From positions 1,116,001 to 1,180,000 of the forward strand of contig JAACMV010000022.1 in assembly GCA_010909725.1 (NCBI GenBank): DNA of 64,000 bases. The letters are read 5' to 3'. Source of the DNA: Picochlorum sp. 'celeri' (lineage: Eukaryota > Chlorophyta > Trebouxiophyceae). Both the position numbers and the translations under genes were made by a program. The notes below the pieces were generated by a model. The model was not told where the DNA came from, ran no database searches, and saw nothing but the letters and a program-made list of their open reading frames with translations. Of the stretch, positions 399 to 42,602 are shown one piece after another; position 1 is the first letter of the stretch; every line of letters starts with the position of its first letter.

Positions 399-1375
399 AT
401 GGCTGTTTCTGACGAACAGGCTGTTGAGCGGCGAACCATGATGGTTGCACGGGAGCTGATGCTGCCTGGAGGCATGTTTTCCTTATTTGGGACTCTATTA
501 ATGATATTTGAATACATGATAATGATTTGAAGCACCCGTATTGCAGGTGGAGGCAGGGAACCAGTCCTTGTGAATTTGAATGATCCGAAAACAGGTGGGT
601 TCTCTGGGTCCTTGAGACGGGCTTTGGTCTGTGAAATCATGAGCATTACTGTATTGTAGGAGAGAAGCGACAATTTATGGTCACTGGGACTCATATACAG
701 GAATGCAATGTGGTGAAGAAGAAATTTAGCTCTTGGTTTGTTGATGACTCTATTATTCAGGATGGTTCCCTATACATCTGGACACCGATTCATATAGTAT
801 TCCTTGTTCTGCCAGCACTAGAGAAAGCAAGAGAACAGGGGACATTTTGTGGTATAGATCATATTGTAGAGTGCCTCGATTGTGGCAGTGATGCATTTGC
901 TGTGATGGATATTGTCCGTGCACAGCAGAAAAAGTTGCAGAATGTGTGCGAGTTCAAAGAAAATGGCGGTGAATTGTATTACAAACTCAATGACGATAAA
1001 ATGAAGGCATGGCTTCAGGGGAGGGTTGTGCGGCTGGAGAATGATTTGAAGAAGAAGGATGATGCATTTGGGAGTCTGTCTGATGCAGCGTTGCATCTGT
1101 ATAGTGTTGGCATGGTGTCTGAATATCTCTCTGATGCTTGGAGTGAGGCATTATATAAACTCTATAACCTCGAGAAGCCTGCTGCAGTGCCTGAATCCAA
1201 TGCTGTTGATGATGTGATTGTGCAGAAGGAAGTTAAAAAGCCACGAGTTGATCCAAAGCAGCTTCAAAAGGCTCGAGCATTGGAGGCAAAGAAAGAGGCC
1301 AAGGCAAAAAAGCTCGCCAAGGAGTCTGCTGGTATGAAAAAAATGAGTGCCTTTTTTAGTGTTAAGAAAAAGTAA
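399..1375 (+). CDS. RNASEH2B: Ribonuclease H2 subunit B
   Basis: Non-catalytic subunit of the nuclear RNase H2 complex that removes ribonucleotides from DNA. Proposed exons 399-471, 547-594 and 660-1375 give 278 aa. The family core SWFVDD, then DGSLYIWTPIHIVFLVLP, is near residues 60-85. A helical middle and a Lys-rich tail follow. The C-terminus carries MKKMSAFF, matching the PCNA-binding (PIP) motif at the end of animal RNase H2B except that the usual first Gln is Met. Intron 595-659 (GT-AG, 65 nt) joins T and G in PKTGEKRQF. The first intron, 472-546, keeps frame only with a GC-AG pair (GCATGT...TTGCAG), because no GT in the right phase exists there. The N-terminal 24 residues therefore rest on that model; the rest is solid. 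Confidence 0.85.
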
Positions 1376-1541
1376 AATGTGTATCATGTAGCTATATATA
1401 ATTCTAAGACAGAACTGATGTTTTTTGACCAAAATCAGGTGAAAACATAAAGATTGCCTGAGGAGTGAACACTGCTGCCATCATATCATCGTCCACCGTA
1501 TTTTATCTTCTCAATAATTCTCATCTGTATATGCATCTGCG

Positions 1542-2595
1542 CTACGGTCTATTTGCTCCCTGAGGCCTGTTCCCTTCTTGGGGTCTGTTGCCTCCTTGAG
1601 GTCTGTTCCCTGCTCCTGCAGGTGAATTGACGGGATCGGATGCGCCACCTGGTTCCATGTCGTACGGGGGAGCGGAATCCTCATTCAAGGTATACGAGTA
1701 TGGACAATTCTCCACTGTACTCATCTGTACTGGAGAGTCATCCCATTCCAAATCGAGGCTTGAAAAATCATATTGTTCCTCTGCTGGGTCGCATTTCCCA
1801 GCAACATTTTGCAACATCCTATTATTTCCAAAGTTGAACATCACGCAACCCTTGTGGCAGTTTGCAGTATAGGGATACTCCAAGCGCCCAGTGGTATGAT
1901 AATGGTAGAATGGAAAAGTCTCGTCAGCATGTCCCATGCACTCATCCAAGTCGTCTGGAAAATTTCCATCGTCTCCATGAGGACCAGCGATTGGAATTCC
2001 ATCGGCCATCACACCCCAAAATGGAGAATGGTCCTCATCATTCTTCTCTGTAAATGCACAGCATGCTCCAGGCAAGGTGTGAACATGATAGATGTCCTGT
2101 GCAACATGGCCTCTGCATTCATCCATTGTTCTTCCCTCATAGATGTATGCATCTCGATCGTCGCGGTCAAGCGCATTGAAAATCGCCACCCCAGACAGCG
2201 TCATACCTGCAAGCAATAGATGATGCCATGTTTAGATCAAGTCATGGTCACGGTAATCGTGGTAAAAAGCACATACCAACGATCCCTTTGACAGAATTTC
2301 CAACTTCATTGATCATGATCGGGGTCTTAGAAATCACAGGATTCTTCGGAACAGTAGCTCTCCAATCTTGAACTTCGGCCATGCCAGGAGTGCTCTGAGC
2401 ACTCCAATCCCACGGAGGACAGCCTGATGCTGAGATCTCCCACACATTGGTGCCATTAGAAGTCGATGAAATAACGCTAACTGATGTATCAGATCCATCA
2501 ATTGCGCACCGGGCTGCATTGGCTAATTTAGCGGAGAGCAACAATGCGGCAAAGGCCATTTCGGTGCTTGACCTTTTGTGCTGTTGGTTCATCAT
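1542..2595 (-). CDS. Secreted YHYH-domain protein
   Basis: Exons 2277-2595 and 1542-2206 on the minus strand (70-nt intron 2207-2276, GTATGT...TGCAG) give 327 aa. A signal peptide (hydrophobic run ending AKLANA, about residues 15-28) precedes a mature domain with the diagnostic motif FPFYHYHTTGRLEYPYTANC. Nearby are HSPFWGVMADGIPIAGPHG and a Cys-rich pattern (ACC, NCHKGC). This is the YHYH family, common in marine bacteria and patchy in eukaryotic microbes, of unknown biochemical role. The tail is built from short repeats, NRPQGG, NRPQEG, NRPQGA, ending NRP before the stop. It is expected to be secreted or surface exposed. The splice joins V-K-G-I-V-G to M-T-L-S-G in frame. Confidence 0.8.
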
Positions 2596-2929
2596 GCACC
2601 CGATCGGAAAGAATTTACGCTAAGCAGTACTTTGGGAATAGATCAGTGGAAAAGATACGTATAATGTCTCTTCTAAAAATTGATCAAATTTAATTGTACA
2701 TGGTAGGAGCGGAAACGCTGCAGGCTTTGACCATCCATGGCGTAGTTTCCTGTCCAGCTTCCGGAATCTCGGGAGCACGCGCATGCTCTTGAATATGCTT
2801 GTATTGCCGCTAGCTTATACAATCTCTTTATGTGGCCATGTAACAGTGCATTGTATTTAACACATTACTATTGTAAAACGCAATAAACTACCATCTAACT
2901 CACATAAATTCATGCGTGGGTTTCCTCCT
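2596..2929. other. Intergenic spacer, 334 nt
   Basis: This spacer lies between the start of the YHYH gene and the stop of the Popeye-like gene, both on the minus strand. No convincing ORF, tRNA or strong repeat is seen. It presumably holds the YHYH promoter and the terminator of the upstream gene. Confidence 0.4.
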
Positions 2930-4059
2930 TCAACATTCAAATTCACCTAGACCTGTTTCACTGCCTTCCTTGCTTAATGCAGTTTCTGTCTTCAGGACTG
3001 ACGACTTCACCCGCTCTACACTCATGATTCTCGTCTTGGCACTCACACCACTAGTAGGAAGTGCATTATGTCGTGTACCCGGTGGCATGAATGGCTCCAA
3101 AGACGACCATATCCATTTAAAGAAGCCTTTGAAGGTGAGCTTGCGAATTTCCCAGTCCTCCAGGGGTCTCACAAAATCTACAGAACGCTTCCCTTCAAAG
3201 AAATCTAAGGGCTCTGGTGTACCGTGAGAGGTTCGAGCAGGGATATTCTGAGGCTCTGACAATGTCCTAAACTCCCATTCTGCGGTGACGGTGAATAAGA
3301 TGAAATTTCTAAAATAATTGGACACGGCTGGCCCACAGTTACATGCCAAGTCATTCAAGGCATAAATGCTCCATTCAAACACTACACAGTCCGCATCAGC
3401 GACCACTTCAAAGGAACCTTTGTTTTCAAAACCTGTAAATAAAGGATTATATGCTTGGATGAGATAATCATGTAGTAGACACCACACATGGCCAACGCAC
3501 CAATATATACGCCAAAGACATTTAGCAGGCCTATATCAAACGCCATCCCACTATAAAAGTTTGCTGTGCTCGAAACACCGTCTCTCTCATTTCTAATACA
3601 ATGAGCTTTTCCTTCAATAAGAAGAACAAAGGTGTCGATGGCTTGCTGCCTGTCAAGAATTTTCTCCCCAGCTTTGACTTTTCGAAACCTTCCCTTTTTC
3701 AGGACCTGCTTGACTTCCAGGGAGCCCATTCCCCCTCTCCGGCCAAAGAAAGCTCTCATTTGTTTTTCATCCTCTGTCTTGAATTTTATGGGCCGCTCAT
3801 CCGACAGTAACCTCACAATGGCTGAACCATGGACAATCAAGTTCATGCAACTCCAAACTATTGTCGAGATTTCGATACTACCTGTCGATTGGTAATCTGG
3901 CCAATTTGGAAATCCACACAATGCGTTTGTCAGGAGAAAGGTATATGCTAGAAAGAGGAAGATACGAATCAAAAGGATGTCAGCAAACAAACCACCAAGG
4001 AAAAAGCAACAAGACGACGCCTGGCCCCATGGACCCGGAGGGTCCATCACCGAAACCAT
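2930..4059 (-). CDS. Popeye-like membrane protein
   Basis: Two minus-strand exons, about 3483-4059 and 2930-3432, around a roughly 50-nt intron give about 359 aa. Hydrophobic segments at about residues 15-45 and 65-85 precede a cytosolic domain. That domain follows the Popeye order: LLSDERPIKF, an FFGRRGGMGSLEVKQVL stretch, LKKGRFRKVKAGEKIL, then LLIEGKAHCI and, after the splice, GSFEVVADADCVVFEWSIYA, which resembles the Popeye strand ending in ADEDCRYICW. In animals, Popeye domains bind cAMP. The canonical DSPEW phosphate-binding motif is not seen here, so binding is uncertain. Two adjacent 5' splice sites (3482 or 3485) keep frame and differ by one residue. The nucleotide cyclase at 5.9-8.7 kb is a suggestive neighbour. 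It could instead be a generic cNMP-binding-like jelly roll. Confidence 0.6.
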
Positions 4060-5881: not shown

Positions 5882-8707
5882 TCACTTTTCCGTTAGTTCA
5901 CGACAGCCCTCCCAAGTTGCAGGTGGAATTCCACCTTGTGATTGCATGAATGCTAACAGTGCCATTGATGGCCCATCGCCCAAGTCCTTCAGCCTTTCAA
6001 GTATTCCCATAGACTGTCGCCAACGGCCTTGTATATATAGAGTATATGCCTCGTGAAACGTATCAAGTAGTTCAATACCATCGGGGGAGGATATCCATGG
6101 AACAGACGCAATGTCTGGGTGCTCATCAAATTCATCAAGGTATGGGTAGTCTGAGAAACTCAAATGTCCACCGGACTCGTGTCCATTTTGCTCCGAATTG
6201 AAACTGCTTCTTCTTCCCTGAGAAGAGTCCGGTCCTCTGTGACTTGTTTCTTCTCTAAAATCGGCCTTGATTGTGTACAGCGTGGTTGGAATAAAACTAC
6301 CTTTGACAAGAACTGTATCAATAGCTCGGCACCTTTCCTGATTTTGCGGGGACAAGAGAGAATAAAAACTGTCTGACAGCAGAATGGGTACATGATACTG
6401 TTTGGTGGCTGCCTCCAACCTTGCTGCCATATTCACATGCGGAGACAAGTACGACGGATCAATTTTATGATGGGAACCAATGGCCCCCTCAATAGCCCAT
6501 CCAACATGTAATCCAAATCCCATGCTTGCCCTGAAACCAGGAATCTTTTCTTGCATGTCTTCTCTATCGCAAAATTTTTTTAGTTTTGAGGACCTATCTA
6601 GAGCTGATTTTATGATTATCATCGATGCAAGAGCTGCGTCTGCAAGGTGCTGAGTTATCTGCAACTGTATGTCCGGATCTTCATCACCACCCCAGAGCAT
6701 TGCTGCCTTTGCCTCTATGATGCTGCCACGCGATCTCTTGTACTTTTCCTGACATTCTGGTAATTTCCATACTACCAGAAAGGCATCACCAATATTCTTA
6801 TTTGGTGCTCCACCGTGGAAACTTACCTCTGCATGCACAATCGATGCAATGCAATTCACAAACTCCATGATGTCCTCTTGCAGAACTTCTGTTGCAGAGG
6901 TGAAATTTCGAATGTCACAAAACCCAAATATTGCCCTCACTCTTCTTCCTGGGAGCATGGGATTTATGTCACCCCCACTTTTGATATTGTTGGCAATGAT
7001 CTCCGCCCCTGCTTCCCCAAAGCCCACTGAGAGTAGGTTGCAAACTTTTCCTATAGACCGTTCCAAAACTCTTGTTTCCAACTGCTTCGACTTTTGCTTT
7101 TCATCTTTATTGACATCTATTTTAAGCGATGATAACGGATTCTCACTCATTTGTTTGACCTGCTGTACCATTCTTTCAATGGGCTGCAATACTAACGAAT
7201 CTGCATCTCGAATGAAAAAGACAGCACCCAGTGATAGCACCATGAGGAGGAATGTGATCCTTGCTATATCTAGTAATGCCTGAAATTGCACATCCCATCT
7301 CACATCAATCCAGGCTTCTGTAATATTTGCTGCAATACCATCAATCTCTGCTACCTGAAATAACAGATCGCAAGGCTGTAATGCATTCTGAACTTTTGCT
7401 TGCATATACAGTCTCCCAGAGACAAATAAACGTACCTGAACTGACGAAGACTGCTTTTCGGTCCTCCTCAGATCGTTAAAGCGCTCAGATTCAAAAAAGG
7501 TGATATTGTGGACAACTAACTTGATCAATCTACCGGTGGTTCTGCCACCAACTTTGTATTCATTCTCATGCTTGTAGTCCCTTAACGCGCTCTGGAAAGC
7601 TGATGAATTGCCTTCGTTGGCAAAGAGATTATGCAAAGTAACGACCCCTCCTTCCTCAAAAGACGTAGCACTACCATAAAACACCCAGGAATCAAACACA
7701 GGCAAAACAGATAGAAGGATCAAAACTCCAAGGATCACTTTCCTCATTGTCATCTCCGTCAACTTTTCCCCAACCCTTGTTTGTGGCTTTAATGTGGTCA
7801 TCTGGAATTGCATTGCACCGTTTTCACTTTCACTCTCACTTGTGGACCTGGATAATCGTAAATCAGATGCTTTGTTGGTTCGCAGACGAAGGCGCTTTGC
7901 TCGAAGCCTTAGTAACTGCAGCACTGAAATAACTTGCATGATCCTAGCTGCCCGTGCCCCTGCCTGAGCGGCCTTGGCCATCCTCTCGAGTGTCAAATGA
8001 CGATTGGAATCATCTGAGTCAATTGTTATTAGATCGACAAAAGCTGGAATGTCACATAGAAGCGAAAAAGAAGCCACTAAATCCATCCAGAAATAAAACC
8101 TGAATGAATCATTGGGCATGGTGATGAAATGCAAATGATATCGAGCAAATACGTTCTAGTACACACCTGAAAAAGTATCCTGGGCGGCATAATGAAGACA
8201 GAGTGATCTCTATCGCGAATATAACCACTGCGGTGATGACAAACGCGAGGAAAAATGGATCTAAATCTGAAGGTGCAACTGCAACCCTAATGAGGTCCGC
8301 ATATAAAATCTGCAATGCAAAGATGTTACTGTCTCAAAATCTCATTCAAATGATTCCACGATGCCACTTATGGCAACACGCACCATTAAAGTAAATATGA
8401 TGGAAGCCAACGTGAAAGGAACTCCATCCATCTTCCGCCTCAATTTCTTCTTCCACTCTTCATTGCATTCACTCTTCCCCTTGAATAGCTCAATGATCGA
8501 TTTTTTCTGCTGGGGCTTTTCTACATATGCTTTTGCTTCTATCTGAATCATGGAAGAATCTCTCTTGGAACTTTTCGATAGCGGACTAACACTAGACAAC
8601 TCACTGTGCCGTTGCCCAGGACTCTCCACGGATTCCTCTTTCTCCTCTCCCCCCATTGGAGTATCACGATCAGGAGCCCCCATTCGGAATACAATATTGA
8701 TTAGCAC
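5882..8707 (-). CDS. Voltage-sensor-like class III nucleotide cyclase
   Basis: Three minus-strand exons, 8360-8707, 8167-8309 and 5882-8099 (introns 50 and 67 nt), give 902 aa. The N-terminus has four membrane segments like a voltage sensor: S1 about 97-116; S2 about 134-155 with FAIEITLSS (F-x-x-E); S3 beginning FYFWMDLVAS with an Asp; S4-like helix about 206-237 with ARAARIMQVISVLQ then LLRLRAKRLRLR. There is no pore. Next come two further membrane helices flanking an extracytosolic segment of roughly 190 residues, a HAMP-like LQPIERMVQQVKQM, and the cyclase catalytic domain: FGFCDIRNFTSATEV (metal Asp), NKNIGDAFLVVW, and HVNMAARLEAATKQY. cAMP versus cGMP specificity cannot be settled. The start may be 8707 or 8683. 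The gene is divergent from the zinc gene at 8960 only through a 250-nt spacer. Confidence 0.82.
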
Positions 8708-25087: not shown

Positions 25088-26653
25088 ATGGGTAAATTAG
25101 CGGAGATTGTTCGTCATCCGGACGAACTGATACCCTTGGTGCGTTGGATAAAGGCGTCTGTTTTGTTGTCCTTTTGTGACGGTGCTAGGGGGTGTGTCTG
25201 TGATGGATTTCCAATGTATGTGTGTAGATGGGTATGTATATCGCTGCGAAGAGAGCGAAGCGTCTTCCAAAAGAGGAAGGGCTGAAGTTTTGCTATGATA
25301 TGTTAAACAAGGTTTCTAGGAGTTTTGCTATCGTCATTCAACAGCTTCCTGAGCGCCTGCGGGATGCTATTTGCGTATTTTACCTTGTTCTTCGGGCGTT
25401 GGACACTGTTGAGGATGATATGGCGTTGGATGATGAAGTAAAGATTCCATTGCTTCGCTGTTTCCATGAAAAGTCTCGTGATAGGTTAGTCTGTGTCCAT
25501 TGCATTATCGAGGTGAATTTTTATATATAAAGGCAACTCTTAACAGGAATATGGATGTGTATATTCTTGATGCAGATCTTGGAAAATGTCCTGTGGATAT
25601 GGGCACTATGTGTCTCTCATGGAGAACTACCCCTGTGTGACTGATGTATTTCTGTCTCTAGACTATGAATATCAGCGAGTCATTGAGGATATTTGCAAGA
25701 GAATGGGGAATGGGATGGCTGATTTTATTCCAAAAGAAGTGAAAACTGTGAAAGAATATAACTTGTATTGTCATTATGTTGCTGGACTGGTGGGGATTGG
25801 TCTGTCGCAGTTGTTTGCATCGTCTGGGTTGGAATCAAAAGAGTTTTTCAAACTTGATGATACGGCAAATGAGATGGGACTCTTTTTGCAGAAAACGAAT
25901 ATTATTAGAGATTATCTGGAAGATATTAATGAGGAGCCTGCGCCAAGGATGTTTTGGCCCAAGGAGATTTGGGGGAAATATGCCAAGGCTTTGGAAGATT
26001 TCAAAGATGCATCAAACAAGGAAAGTGCCTTGGCATGTTTGAACCACATGATTACAGATGCGCTTTCCCATGTAGATGAATGCTTGGATTACATGTCCAA
26101 GTTGAGAGATCCATCGATATTTGCCTTCTGCGCGATCCCACAAGTCATGGCAATCGGCACTTTGGAAGCATGTTACAACAATCACAATGTGTTCACAGGT
26201 GTGGTGAAAATGAGACGGGGAGAGACTGCAAAGATTATGTGGTTTTTAAAGGATTATACTGATGCTTGTATTTTATTTAGACATTACGCCAAGCTTATAG
26301 CAGCAAAAGCACAGGTTCAAGTAGACAAGGATGATCCCAACCGAGAGCGCATTTTGGAGATTTGCCAGAGAATTGAGACGACGGCATCTGCACGAATTGA
26401 ATCCTGTGTGCGTGAAGCTTCCGATTTGGATCCAACGCCGTTACCTATGAGCACAAGAATTCTTTTTCTCATTGTATCAATCATGTATGGTGCCTATGCA
26501 TGGAAGATTGATAAAGCCAGAGAGGTCTTTGGCATACCATACCATGAGAAAACAACCCTTGTTGATCTTATGAACATGTGTATTGCGGTGGTCCTTATCC
26601 TGTACAGTGTCGTGTCAGTTTTTGCAAAATTAACAGCAATACGGTATTCTTAA
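25088..26653 (+). CDS. SQS: Squalene synthase
   Basis: Exons 25088-25138, 25228-25484 and 25576-26653 (introns 89 and 91 nt) give 461 aa. The spliced start runs HPDELIPL into [18 protein letters not shown], aligning without gaps with plant enzymes. Family motifs: [13 protein letters not shown], the Asp-rich [24 protein letters not shown] and the second Asp motif [14 protein letters not shown]-terminal pair of hydrophobic segments ([34 protein letters not shown]) anchors it in the ER. It condenses two farnesyl diphosphates to squalene, the first step to sterols. The stop is 5 nt from the NSUN6 stop on the other strand. Confidence 0.95.
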
Positions 26654-30934: not shown

Positions 30935-33406
30935 ATGGGACAGACAATGCAGTCTTCGTTACCACAGGAAGGTTCTGCCATTTCGCTGAGTTCCATGTTG
31001 TCGGAAAAAGATAAGAATGGGGGGATGATCAAAACAAAAACTACTAGGAAGACGGTCTTCTCGAGAGATTTGAGAATGCCCCAGTCTCCCCTCAGCCAGT
31101 CCATTCAGCAGCGTACTCTTGATAGCTGGACAATAACCTATTCCATCATCATTGTTGGATCACTGTCCTATTTGACATCTATTTGGTTATTATGCTACTA
31201 TTTACCCACGGGAGATGCAATTGTGGTGCGAGATGAGTTCTATTCTGGAATACCAGCAGCTCTATATTCGATGCCAACGGCAGCATTTGCCTGTGCTTTG
31301 TTTCTCAATCTGTCATCCTTATTCTTTGAGAATCACAGGGCTCGCCAGCAGCTGTGTGTGTTAGTCACGTATATATCAGGTGTTGCGTTTTTATATGAGC
31401 TTCTCGCATGGTATGGGTCGGCGCCGATTTTTCTGACGGCGAGCAGCAGACCGCATTCTGCCATGCGGTACATCATGTGGAGCCATGCAACACCTGCCAT
31501 GGTATATGCTCTATCCATGGTGTCCGAGTTTTCTCTCCAACGAACTTTTAGAGCAATGATAGCAGATATTTTTATGATTCTGATCGCCATTCCAGGAGAG
31601 TACTGTGCATCATGGGTTCTAAGATATGTGTGCAATACACTTTCCATGGCCATGTTTCCACTTGTTATGCATGAGATTTGGATGATGTTCACCCAGGCTA
31701 TGGGGGTCGCTTTAGATCACGATAGACAAGGATACCATTCGTTGAAGGCGTTGAGGAGTGTGACGCTGGTGCTTTGGAGCATCTTCCCATTTGTATGGGT
31801 GCTGTGCCAGTTCCAGTTGATTGATAGTGTTGTTGAGGAGGGTTTGTTGAGTTTGGCAGATGTCTTTGGTAAAATTGTGTTTTCTTCATCTTTATTACAG
31901 AGTAATTTTGTCACCATTGAGGCTCGGAGAAGGCTTGCATCCAAAGCAGCAGAGGACGCCAATAGAACTGCTGTTATTTATGAGTTGCAGGAATTGTTGG
32001 CACAAAAGGAGGAGTTCATTGCGGTTGTGACGCACGAACTTCGCACTCCATTGAATGGTATCATAGGCTTGAGTGAAGCACTGTTAGCATCTCGGGTCCT
32101 TGACGGTGCCAATGCTCGTAGTCTGAGTGCCATTCGGAATAGCGGTATTCGGCTGCTGGCATTGGTAAATGATGTCTTGGACGCTGCGGCCATGAAGCGA
32201 GGAACGCTGAGTATTCATGCAAAGAGGCTGCAGATTTCAAAAATAATTGATGATGTGCTTGAATTGACAGCAGCTTTGGTGAGTCCTGGCGTGAAGCTGT
32301 CGACACGGGTGTCTGCAATCACCCCTCCTGTTTTGGGTGATCCCCAGCGGTTGGTGCAAGTACTCTACAATCTCGTCGGGAATGCATGCAAATTCACTGA
32401 AGAAGGAGAAATTTTGATTGAGGCTTCTGGAACAGCAGATGATGACTACGTGACCGTGAAAGTCCGTGACACAGGAGTCGGGATTCCTGAGAACAAGCTG
32501 GATGACATTTTTGTGCCATTTTCGCAGGGCAACATGTCACTGAGACGCAAGTATGGAGGGACAGGACTTGGACTCAGTGTTGTGAAACATATTGTCGAGG
32601 CGCACGGGGGAACCATCCGCGTAGAATCCACAGAAGGTGAAGGGTCATTGTTCACATTCACGATACCATCATGCGTCCATGGACCAGCTGCACGTAGTTC
32701 AACGGAATCTGGAGGTAGCGACAAGAGCTCAGATATGTGGAAACGCTTTTCGCTAGATAGCGAGGCTCGCCATTCATTCGAGTTTGAAAAGAAGATGTTG
32801 AAAAAAGCAGGCCAACAGGTGGAACCAGAAAAGGCTGCCAATGTATTTGCCAACAGCAAGCCCAGCTTTCCTGATTTGACTGCAACCACTGATGTGGAGG
32901 GCAGGATCATCGCCCAGGACAAGGGAGATACTGATACAACAACTGACTCGAAAATGAAGCCCTCTGATAGTATTTTGAGAGACCTAAAGGACACAAAACT
33001 GTTTAGAATTCTGTCTGTGGATGATGATCCAGTGAACCAGATGGTCGTCCAAGCCATGCTAAAAAACAAAGGATTTGAAGTATCCACAGCAGCAGATGGT
33101 GAGAGAGCCTTAGAAATGATTGAAGATATGCATAAAACAGATAATCTACCTGATGCCGTCCTCTTGGATGTTATGATGCCAGGTCTGAGCGGCTTTGATG
33201 TTGTCAGGCAAGTCAGATCATCCTATCCAGAATGGAAAGCACCCGTCCTCCTTGTCTCTGCGTCGGGACAAAAAGAGCAAATTAAAGAAGGCATGGACTC
33301 TGGGGCAGATGCATATCTCACAAAGCCGCTCAAAATTGAAGAACTGCCCAAAACCATCAAGCATTACATTAGAAAGGCGCAAGCCTCGAGTGATGATAGT
33401 GAATAA
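30935..33406 (+). CDS. Histidine-kinase rhodopsin with receiver domain
   Basis: 823 aa, intronless. Residues 65-330 form seven membrane helices of microbial-rhodopsin type. Helix C is MRYIMWSHATPAM (177-189), helix F VTLVLWSIFPFVWVL (276-290), helix G LADVFGKIVFSSSLL. Against bacteriorhodopsin: R82=R178, Y83=Y179, W86=W182, P91=P187, W182=W281, P186=P285, W189=W288, D212=D309 and the retinal Lys216=K313 are kept. D85 is replaced by Met181 and D96 by Ala192. A histidine kinase follows: VVTHELRTPLNG (His367), NLVGNACKF, DTGVGI, GGTGLGLS. Then a receiver: LSVDDDPVNQ, phospho-acceptor in LLDVMMPG (about 744), YLTKPLK. The layout matches algal HKRs without a cyclase. It should be a light sensor, not a proton pump. 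Confidence 0.88.
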   Translation: MGQTMQSSLPQEGSAISLSSMLSEKDKNGGMIKTKTTRKTVFSRDLRMPQSPLSQSIQQRTLDSWTITYSIIIVGSLSYLTSIWLLCYYLPTGDAIVVRDEFYSGIPAALYSMPTAAFACALFLNLSSLFFENHRARQQLCVLVTYISGVAFLYELLAWYGSAPIFLTASSRPHSAMRYIMWSHATPAMVYALSMVSEFSLQRTFRAMIADIFMILIAIPGEYCASWVLRYVCNTLSMAMFPLVMHEIWMMFTQAMGVALDHDRQGYHSLKALRSVTLVLWSIFPFVWVLCQFQLIDSVVEEGLLSLADVFGKIVFSSSLLQSNFVTIEARRRLASKAAEDANRTAVIYELQELLAQKEEFIAVVTHELRTPLNGIIGLSEALLASRVLDGANARSLSAIRNSGIRLLALVNDVLDAAAMKRGTLSIHAKRLQISKIIDDVLELTAALVSPGVKLSTRVSAITPPVLGDPQRLVQVLYNLVGNACKFTEEGEILIEASGTADDDYVTVKVRDTGVGIPENKLDDIFVPFSQGNMSLRRKYGGTGLGLSVVKHIVEAHGGTIRVESTEGEGSLFTFTIPSCVHGPAARSSTESGGSDKSSDMWKRFSLDSEARHSFEFEKKMLKKAGQQVEPEKAANVFANSKPSFPDLTATTDVEGRIIAQDKGDTDTTTDSKMKPSDSILRDLKDTKLFRILSVDDDPVNQMVVQAMLKNKGFEVSTAADGERALEMIEDMHKTDNLPDAVLLDVMMPGLSGFDVVRQVRSSYPEWKAPVLLVSASGQKEQIKEGMDSGADAYLTKPLKIEELPKTIKHYIRKAQASSDDSE

Positions 33407-40550: not shown

Positions 40551-42602
40551 ATGGATTTCAGGCATTTGGCTTGGGTGACCTTGCTAACGTTGTTCACAAT
40601 ATCAGTGGCCACACCAGATGGAGGAAGTGCCAGGCGTCGACACTTCAGACATCGACTCAGGAGATTCGCTCTATCACGAATGCCGAAGCAGTATGGAATG
40701 TTTCCGATGTCACCAGAGCTTCAGCCACAAGAAGCGCTGCCATCGCCAAAGCCGTATGGAGTATTTCCAACGCCACCAGGACCAGAGATCCAGCCACAAG
40801 AAGTGCTGCCTCAATGCAAGGATGCTGGTGATGAGTGCACTAGCGATGCAGAGTGCTGCCCTGCTCTAACAGGATTGATGTGCTTGGAGAATACAGTCAT
40901 AGTTGATGGGATCTCGTATCAAGTATATCAATGTCTTCCTCCACCGGAACCGCAGCCAGAGCCAGAGCCTGAGCCTTTGCCACAGCCAGGGATGTCACCA
41001 GAGCCTTTGCCACAGCCAGGGATGTCACCGGAGCCACAGCCTCTTCCATTTCCCCAGCCACAAGAAATTCCTCCTGAATGTAAGGATCGGGGTGACATAT
41101 GCAGTAACGATGAGGAATGCTGCCCTCTACTTTCTGGTTTATTCTGCTTGGAGTCCATTGTCATAGTCGATGGAGTCGCGCAGTCAGTAGTTCAGTGCCA
41201 GCCTCTACCGGAGTCGCAGCCTCTGCCATCACCTCAGCCTTTGCCACAGCCATCACCGCAGCCTCTGCCATCACCTCAGCCTTTGCCACAGCCATCACCG
41301 CAGGCACAGCTATCGCCGCAGCCATTGCCACAGCCATCACCGCAGGCACAGCTATCGCCGCAGCCATTGCCACAGCCACAGCCATCACCTCAGGCGCAGC
41401 TATCGCCGCAGCCATTGCCACAGCCACAGCCATCACCACAGCCATCACCACAGCCATCACCACAGCCACCACCACAACCATCACCACAACCATCACCAGA
41501 GCCATCACCAGAGCCATCACCGCAGCCATCACCAGAGCCACCCCCTCAACCACAAGAGATTCCTCCGCAATGCAAGATTGCTGGCGAACAGTGCATCAAC
41601 GATGAAGAATGCTGCCCTTTAATATCTGGATTGCTGTGCTTGGAAACCACTGTCACCATTGAGGGAGTCCCACGAAGAGTATTCCAATGCCTCCCAGAAA
41701 CACCGTCAGTTGAGCCGTCGCCTGAGCCATCGCCATCTCCTGAGCCGTCACCATCGCCTGAGCCGTCACCATCGCCTGAGCCATCACCATCGCCTGAGCC
41801 ATCACCACCGCCGTTTCCAATTTTCGTTCCCCAGCCACTGTTATCGCCATCTCCTGTTCCATCGCCAGGTCCTGTGCCAGTGCCAGTTCCAGTTCCAGTT
41901 CCAGTCCCATCACCACCGCCTCCAGATGCCAGTCCACCGCCACCTGAGTCGAGTCCTCCTCCGCCCCCAGCATGCCCAGACTCCTGCACTGTGGATGGAA
42001 TCGAAGGAACATGTCGACAGGACTGCCTTCAGGATGAGACGCAGTCAGGAGTGTGTGTATCGGGCCAAGAAGATTGCGGATATTGCTGCATTCAAAATGT
42101 TGAGCCGAGTCCACCACCACCTGAGTCGAGTCCTCCTCCGCCCCCAGCATGCCCAGACTCCTGCACTGTGGATGGAATCGAAGGAACATGTCGACAGGAC
42201 TGCCTTCAGGATGAGACACAGTCAGGAGCGTGTGTATCGGGCCAAGAAGATTGCGGATATTGCTGCATTCAAAATGTTGAGCCGAGTCCACCACCACCTG
42301 AGTTGAGTCCTCCTCCGCCCCCAGCATGCCCAGACTCCTGCACTGTGGATGGAATCGAAGGAACATGTCGACAGGACTGCCTTCAGGATGAGATACAGTC
42401 AGGAGCGTGTGTATCGGGCCAAGAAGATTGCGGATATTGTTGCATTCAGAATGTTGCACCAGGGCTGTGCGATCAGAAGACCTCCTGTTCCGGAACATGC
42501 AAATGTCTTCTGGACGGTTCCATGCCCCCTTCTGCTAATGGTGGCTGCAGCAATAATAAGTGCAACGCAGTGAACAATGCCTACCAGTGCTATTGTGCTT
42601 GA
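40551..42602 (+). CDS. Secreted Pro-rich protein with cysteine modules
   Basis: 683 aa, intronless. A signal peptide (about residues 1-20, [16 protein letters not shown]) precedes three copies of a Cys module, about 40 residues each, of the type [20 protein letters not shown]...C (C-x6-C-x5-CC). They are separated by long Pro/Ser/Gln tracts ([24 protein letters not shown]). Next come three near-identical 59-residue units with [19 protein letters not shown] and GQEDCGYCC, and a final Cys-rich tail ending CYCA. Such Pro-rich, wall-type architecture recalls hydroxyproline-rich glycoproteins of green algae (pherophorin-like linkers), though the Cys modules themselves are knottin-like and unrecognised. 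Confidence 0.8.
41209..41549 (+). repeat. Pro/Gln/Ser codon repeat tract
   Basis: Short imperfect DNA repeats such as CAGCCATCACC and CAGCCTTTGCC encode [13 protein letters not shown] linkers. Antisense and shifted frames appear open here only because of the repeat. Confidence 0.8.
41932..42456 (+). repeat. Three tandem 177-bp coding repeats
   Basis: The segment beginning GCATGCCCAGACTCC recurs at spacing 177 and 177 (from about 41971, 42148 and 42325), with only a few substitutions; the third copy is cut short by the C-terminal module. 177 nt is exactly 59 codons, so copy number can change without breaking the frame. This is recent duplication. Confidence 0.85.

What the first reader, a model, noticed from the sequence alone, without database searches (positions are those of the whole stretch)
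30935..33406. Rhodopsin histidine kinase with the primary counterion replaced by Met
The N-terminal 7TM block is not a generic sensor: helix C (RYxxWxxxTP), helix F (VLWSxxPxVW) and helix G (DVxxK) are microbial rhodopsin. The retinal Lys (K313), D212 equivalent (D309), Arg82, Trp86 and Trp182/Trp189 equivalents are kept. The D85 position is Met181 and D96 is Ala192. Without D85 the Schiff base may be deprotonated and the pigment UV- or blue-shifted, or stabilised only by D309. Output would go to His367 and the fused receiver. No cyclase follows, unlike many algal HKRs.
Basis: partly seen in the sequence, partly recalled or inferred. Interest (0 to 1): 0.88.

Follow-up and report, generated by a model that had tools for sequence, protein, structure and literature searches.

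The report
Algal light-switched rhodopsin kinase
This green-alga gene encodes a rhodopsin fused to a signalling kinase, an ordinary relative of a known Chlamydomonas UV/blue light switch; it lacks the usual acid next to the pigment but keeps another acid on a neighbouring helix that may do its job.

The parts
30935..33406 (+). HKR1/Cop5-type histidine kinase rhodopsin, 823 aa, one uninterrupted ORF
   Evidence: relation to the Cop5 group
31088..31201 (+). TM0, extra N-terminal helix (residues 52-89)
   Evidence: AlphaFold2 helix (residues 51-62 are under pLDDT 50); hydropathy peak at 69-87; the alignment to Rh-PDE 7cj3 starts at residue 63 / chain residue 47
31337..31411 (+). helix B / TM2 (residues 135-159), unbroken in the model
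   Evidence: block with E155 has mean pLDDT 94
31397..31399 (+). E155, acid (Glu/Asp) in all readable rows, four residues after invariant Ala151; probably the BR Tyr57 place
   Evidence: E 37/37, D 17/17; entropy; register tests
31460..31522 (+). helix C / TM3 (residues 176-196), RYIMWSHATP
31466..31468 (+). R178 (BR Arg82)
31475..31477 (+). M181 at the BR Asp85 place
31724..31810 (+). helix F / TM6 (residues 264-292), W281, F284 (BR Tyr185), P285, W288
31826..32089 (+). helix G / TM7 running into a signalling helix and the first helix of the kinase dimerisation domain (residues 298-385; residues 321-350 have mean pLDDT of only 55-66)
31859..31861 (+). D309 (BR Asp212)
   Evidence: 58/58
31871..31873 (+). 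K313, retinal Schiff-base lysine (BR Lys216)
   Evidence: 58/58
32003..32194 (+). HisKA domain, phospho-acceptor H367 (32033-32035)
32336..32668 (+). HATPase_c kinase domain
33008..33358 (+). receiver domain, phospho-acceptor D745 (33167-33169)

Best explanation
The gene is the Picochlorum member of the HKR1/Cop5 family: an 8-TM type-1 rhodopsin that binds retinal at K313 and drives a fused histidine kinase and receiver. Inferred mechanism: the helix-C acid (D85) is lost and the negative charge near the Schiff base comes from D309 plus E155 on helix B, bridged by R178. One retinal isomer points the Schiff base at the hydrophobic M181 side, so it is deprotonated and absorbs UV; the other points it at the E155/D309 side, so it is protonated and absorbs blue. 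This makes a slow or bistable UV/blue switch. The switch acts through the helix that leaves helix G and so on H367 autophosphorylation; phosphate passes to D745 and then, through the single HPt protein, to separate response regulators (one with a Myb domain, one with a COP1-type WD40 domain), not to a fused cyclase. Shown: architecture, residue identities and conservation, presence of HPt and response regulators; 8-TM fold by prediction. Inferred: retinal binding, colour, bistability, the role of E155, the output route.
Against: I found no spectrum of any member of the window's own branch. The helix-B register is not settled by direct alignment to BR: phmmer and hmmsearch put a one-residue gap so that Y154 meets Tyr57 and for Cop5 phmmer gaps the other way; MAFFT puts E155 opposite BR Ser59 and a Leu of Rh-PDE. 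Ungapped scoring against prokaryotic rhodopsins (residues 140-154) favours E155 = 57 in 27 of 39 and E155 = 60 in 12 of 39, with BR itself a tie (0.46 and 0.47); with helix A added, 26 of 39 at 57, 6 at 56, 4 at 58, 3 at 60. Scored over 140-159 without 155, E155 = 60 won more often, 22 to 16 of 40. If E155 = 60 it sits a turn further out and is a poorer counterion. No coordinates were to hand, so no E155-K313 distance was measured. In Rh-PDE the helix-C acid is always protonated and D212 alone is the counterion (PMC7644710 passages), so a second acid need not be one. The Cop5 group differs from the window at BR 88, 89, 96, 126 and 138, so its colours may not carry over. The helix between G and the kinase is predicted with low confidence. 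Transfer from HPt to regulators is analogy with plant phosphorelays (recalled).
Confidence: 0.55

Rival explanations
1. D309 alone is the counterion; E155 is protonated, structural or part of a proton path (or sits a turn further out, at BR 60) and Met181 simply tunes the pigment, as in Rh-PDE where D292 is the sole counterion.
For: D309 is 58/58 invariant; Rh-PDE precedent (PMC7644710 passages); register E155 = 60 wins in part of the tests.
Against: Does not explain why an acid, tolerant of Glu/Asp exchange, is kept throughout the same family that lost D85.
Confidence: 0.33
2. The protein no longer acts mainly as a photoreceptor: like Cop5, which is needed for ammonium chemotaxis, it is a chemical or membrane-state sensor with a rhodopsin fold.
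For: Cop5-less strains fail ammonium chemotaxis while phototaxis-defective strains do it normally (PMC11621555 abstract and passages); its extra helix is discussed there as a possible reception site.
Against: Retinal Lys, D212, W86, W182 and P186 are kept in all readable rows; the Cop5 rhodopsin binds retinal and switches.
Confidence: 0.12
3. An anion such as chloride, or water, is the counterion complex, as in halorhodopsins with a neutral residue at 85.
For: HKR2/Cop6 lacks carboxylates at the usual places and is still green-sensitive; water or ions are suggested (PMC8815786 passages).
Against: Met is not a typical halide ligand (recalled); two conserved acids near the site would disfavour an anion (inference); the 4 controls with Thr at 85 keep Tyr57.
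Confidence: 0.08

Closest known systems
Chlamydomonas reinhardtii HKR1 / Cop5 (P0050, CHLRE_02g074150v5)
   Same: Rhodopsin-HisKA-HATPase-receiver, Met at 85, helix-B acid in the same column, F at 185, D212, E204, K216; extra helix with cytosolic N-terminus (passages of PMC6284317 and PMC11621555).
   Different: Cop5 has Thr at 89, Asp not Glu in helix B, Leu at 88 and a cyclase domain (PF00211 listed); the window has Ala185, Glu155, His184 and ends after the receiver.
CsRh1 (Coccomyxa) and ApRh1 (Auxenochlorella) of PMC7693036 Table 2B
   Same: Met-Ala-Thr at 85/89/90, D212, E204, K216.
   Different: Thr instead of Ala at 96; I saw no physiology for either.
Rhodopsin phosphodiesterase of Salpingoeca rosetta (7cj3)
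   Different: Glu at 85, Tyr in helix B, phosphodiesterase output.
NeoR (Rhizoclosmatium)
   Same: Bistable UV/visible enzyme rhodopsin with an unusual set of acids (PMC7655827 passages).
   Different: Has Glu at 85 and 212 and adds Asp at 89; cyclase output.

Membership tests
Histidine kinase rhodopsin (HKR), HKR1/Cop5 type | Type-1 rhodopsin domain with Schiff-base Lys | tested here: met
   PF01036 over cut-off; K313 aligned to BR K216
Histidine kinase rhodopsin (HKR), HKR1/Cop5 type | HisKA, HATPase and receiver in the same chain with catalytic residues | tested here: met
Histidine kinase rhodopsin (HKR), HKR1/Cop5 type | 8-TM (type Ib) topology | tested here: met
   by prediction only:
Histidine kinase rhodopsin (HKR), HKR1/Cop5 type | Met at BR 85 | tested here: met
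Histidine kinase rhodopsin (HKR), HKR1/Cop5 type | Groups with Cop5 rather than with other HKR classes | tested here: inconclusive
   linked by iterated search, but no other HKR class was in the tree, only BR and Rh-PDE on very long branches
Histidine kinase rhodopsin (HKR), HKR1/Cop5 type | UV/blue bistable photochromism | not testable with these tools
   needs purified protein
Two-component cyclase opsin (2c-Cyclop) | fused guanylyl cyclase domain | tested here: not met
   ORF ends after the receiver; cyclase matches lie in other places
Light-driven proton pump | D85 acceptor and D96 donor | tested here: not met
   M181 and A192

The most novel reading that the evidence does not exclude
In the whole HKR1/Cop5 family the Schiff-base acid has moved from helix C (85) to helix B (57): a relocated counterion that by itself explains isomer-dependent protonation and UV/blue bistability, and a design rule for bistable rhodopsins (D85->Met with Tyr57->Glu/Asp). 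(Probability lowered from 0.30 after the mixed register test.)
Probability: 0.25. Interest if true: 0.65.

Novelty: new member of a known kind. Interest (0 to 1): 0.4.

Why it matters
As a gene it is ordinary for its group. Its use is comparative: a genome in which only one rhodopsin locus per haplotype was found, with one HPt locus, keeps a Met-type HKR without a cyclase, so what an HKR does can be studied with few partners. The conserved helix-B acid offers a concrete answer, testable by one point mutation in the already purified Cop5 rhodopsin, to how HKR1 holds a protonated blue state without the D85 acid.

Tried and rejected
Viral contigs: 56 pattern matches, none a relative. Blh-type retinal synthase PF15461: no match, but no control rang either, so absence is not shown; RPE65-family genes found instead. 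The class III cyclase inside the window (5882-8134, minus) was considered as a split-off Cop5 cyclase: no BLASTP match at E<=10 to the 17 proteins P0041-P0057 (repeated without error, and phmmer also empty), so I dropped the idea; P0038 was not in that set. CHASE cytokinin-receptor domain: 0 matches, 1 control rang. The registers E155 = BR 56, 58, 59 or 60 were considered; 57 is preferred for the reasons given, 60 remains possible. Literature: in the listings and the passages or sections read of eleven papers I saw no mention of an acid at BR 57 in HKRs; most listed papers were not opened, and one search listed only unrelated papers. One search (Picochlorum + rhodopsin) listed 2 papers whose titles and abstract beginnings are unrelated. 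The key paper, Luck et al. 2012 (PMC3501036), is not held, so it may already note the acid. The prokaryotic control is narrow: it was seeded with BR and is nearly all haloarchaeal. No Foldseek listing was obtained.

Full report
What is there. The window lies in a 27.4 Mb, 30-contig assembly. The ORF 30935-33406 is 817/823 identical to the deposited Picochlorum sp. BPE23 protein M9435_001752, so the organism is a Picochlorum or very near it. A six-frame search with PF01036 finds two places only, this one and C2:1165352-1165966. The C2 copy has an 823-aa ORF with 16 nt differences, 11 silent and 5 changing, all five at residues 505-671. The matches of the other families searched also came in pairs on different contigs, so I read them as haplotypes and count one rhodopsin locus per haplotype.

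Checking the residues. The kinase (H367, ATP-site motifs) and receiver (D745) look intact; D696-D698, D745 and K797 are among the columns conserved at 90% or more in the 16 first relatives (P0015 ends before the receiver).

The family. One search with residues 50-345 gave 16 proteins; search 2 from the most distant of them gave 27, among them named Micractinium, Chlorella, Parachlorella and Auxenochlorella proteins, one deposited as 'HKR1'; search 3 from a Chlamydomonas eustigma hit gave 20, among them C. reinhardtii CHLRE_02g074150v5 and Haematococcus 'chlamyopsin-5'. Together they are P0001-P0057. P0050 carries M154, D280 and K284; Table 2B of PMC7693036 gives Cop5 M113, D239 and K243, a constant shift of 41, which identifies P0050 as Cop5/HKR1. 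In an alignment of 58 rows (window plus 57), 40 in the window's group and 18 in the Cop5 group, gaps left out: Met at BR 85 in 37/37 and 18/18; Asp212 and Lys216 in 40/40 and 18/18; Phe at 185 in 39/39 and 18/18; Thr at 89 in 8/37 (Ala in 29) and 18/18; His at 88 in 37/37 and 4/18. Counts are of sequences, many closely related, not of events; the groups are by the search that found them, and few members bear names. A tree of 54 of the 58 rows (P0037, P0039, P0040 and P0057 dropped as partial) plus BR and Rh-PDE separates 17 Cop5-group rows (99/93) and joins the window with P0001-P0015 (100/100); whether the window's 40-row group is one clade is left open, the outgroup branches are very long, and the program warned of long branches meeting.

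The Met is known. PMC7693036 (section 3.4 and the tables; passages) lists Met at 85 for Cop5, Vop5, GpRh4, CsRh1 and ApRh1, and says that Cop5 is active in UV-A and blue light despite lacking Asp85. PMC8006352 (passages) gives 380 and 487 nm states, stable in the dark for at least 50 min, and a chimera in which they switch a cyclase.

The helix-B acid. In 54 rows, helix-B residues 140, 147 and 151 never vary and residue 155 is only Glu (37) or Asp (17). With Ala151 on BR Ala53, 147, 151 and 155 match V49, A53 and Y57. Prokaryotic control: 44 distinct sequences from 47 loci, nearly all haloarchaeal; 43 have a letter at 57 and all 43 are Tyr, with Asp (40) or Thr (4) at 85. Channelrhodopsins carry Lys there (PMC4657025 passages), so Tyr is not universal.

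Is the register right? Aligners disagree. phmmer and hmmsearch set Y154 on Tyr57 with a one-residue gap inside helix B; for Cop5 phmmer gaps the other way; MAFFT sets E155 on BR Ser59 and a Leu of Rh-PDE. Yet window and Cop5 groups align with each other without a gap there and the model helix is unbroken, so gaps inside the helix are unlikely. Ungapped scoring of residues 140-154, the acid left out, gives Rh-PDE a clear best at Ala-on-Ala (1.34; next 0.06), and Rh-PDE and BR align there Tyr on Tyr. Against 39 prokaryotic sequences the same test gives 27 for E155 = 57 and 12 for 60, with BR itself a tie; adding helix A gives 26 for 57, 6 for 56, 4 for 58 and 3 for 60, BR then 57 (-0.08; next -0.32). 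Extending to 140-159 without 155 tilts to 60 (22 to 16; 1 each for 56 and 58; 40 sequences, Rh-PDE among them). Structural rows for BR begin at local residue 54 = BR 6 (for example 1pxr), the offset of 48 that also gives 57. I take 57 as likely (about four in five, my judgement), 60 as the alternative. Only ends of structural alignments and no coordinates were available.

What it may do. Tyr57 links D212 to R82; [quoted passage not shown] A carboxylate there would belong to the counterion complex. That it is the counterion is my inference.

Output. The ORF ends after the receiver. In the same genome, per haplotype: one HPt locus; three HisKA loci: this one, one with an upstream PAS piece carrying an NCRFLQ motif which I recall as typical of LOV domains, and one without a recognised sensor; receivers in seven loci including this one, one with a Myb domain and one whose second half is a COP1-type WD40 propeller (receiver 90-201; best PDB match COP1, E 9.2e-75). 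No CHASE domain was found. Class III cyclase matches lie at three places per haplotype, none in this ORF. A relay through the HPt to one of these regulators is the simplest route; it is untested. RPE65-family oxygenases, three loci per haplotype, one of them nearest in PDB to a carotenoid cleavage dioxygenase, RPE65 and others including beta-carotene 15,15'-oxygenase, could supply retinal.

Biology. Cop5-less Chlamydomonas strains lose ammonium chemotaxis (PMC11621555 abstract and passages). Picochlorum has no flagella (recalled), so the function kept here is unlikely to be ciliary steering.

Verdict. Observation confirmed; interpretation partly supported; new member of a known kind. The part worth a bench test is the helix-B acid. 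On re-checking, the mixed register test made me lower the confidence of the mechanism from 0.60 to 0.55, lower the novel case from 0.30 to 0.25, and raise the D309-only rival from 0.30 to 0.33.

Noticed in passing
G000 C10:931753-935088 (L012, ORF 1234-3294) and its pair on C16: A response regulator fused to a COP1-type WD40 propeller (best PDB matches are COP1, E 9.2e-75, then RFWD2), about 2.6 kb from a carotenoid oxygenase gene. It would let a phosphorelay reach a COP1/SPA-like light-signalling output; possibly more unusual than the finding itself.
   Followed up: partly
window 5882-8134, minus: 750-aa class III nucleotide cyclase (PF00211 at residues 405-613) about 23 kb from the rhodopsin kinase; no similarity found to the proteins P0041-P0057, most of which carry a cyclase domain.
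   Followed up: partly
window 25228-26653, plus: Two ORFs that match the first and the remaining part of the squalene/phytoene synthase family, so probably one gene with an intron.
   Followed up: partly
window 40551-42602, plus: 683-aa proline-rich protein with repeated cysteine-rich units, three of them nearly identical by eye; no Pfam match.
   Followed up: partly
G000 C22:1089522-1091063: A carotenoid oxygenase gene about 56 kb upstream of the rhodopsin kinase on the same contig, outside the window.
   Followed up: no
window 31484-31486 (residue H184): His at the BR Phe88 place is kept in 37/37 rows of the window's group but 4/18 of the Cop5 group; its role is unknown.
   Followed up: no
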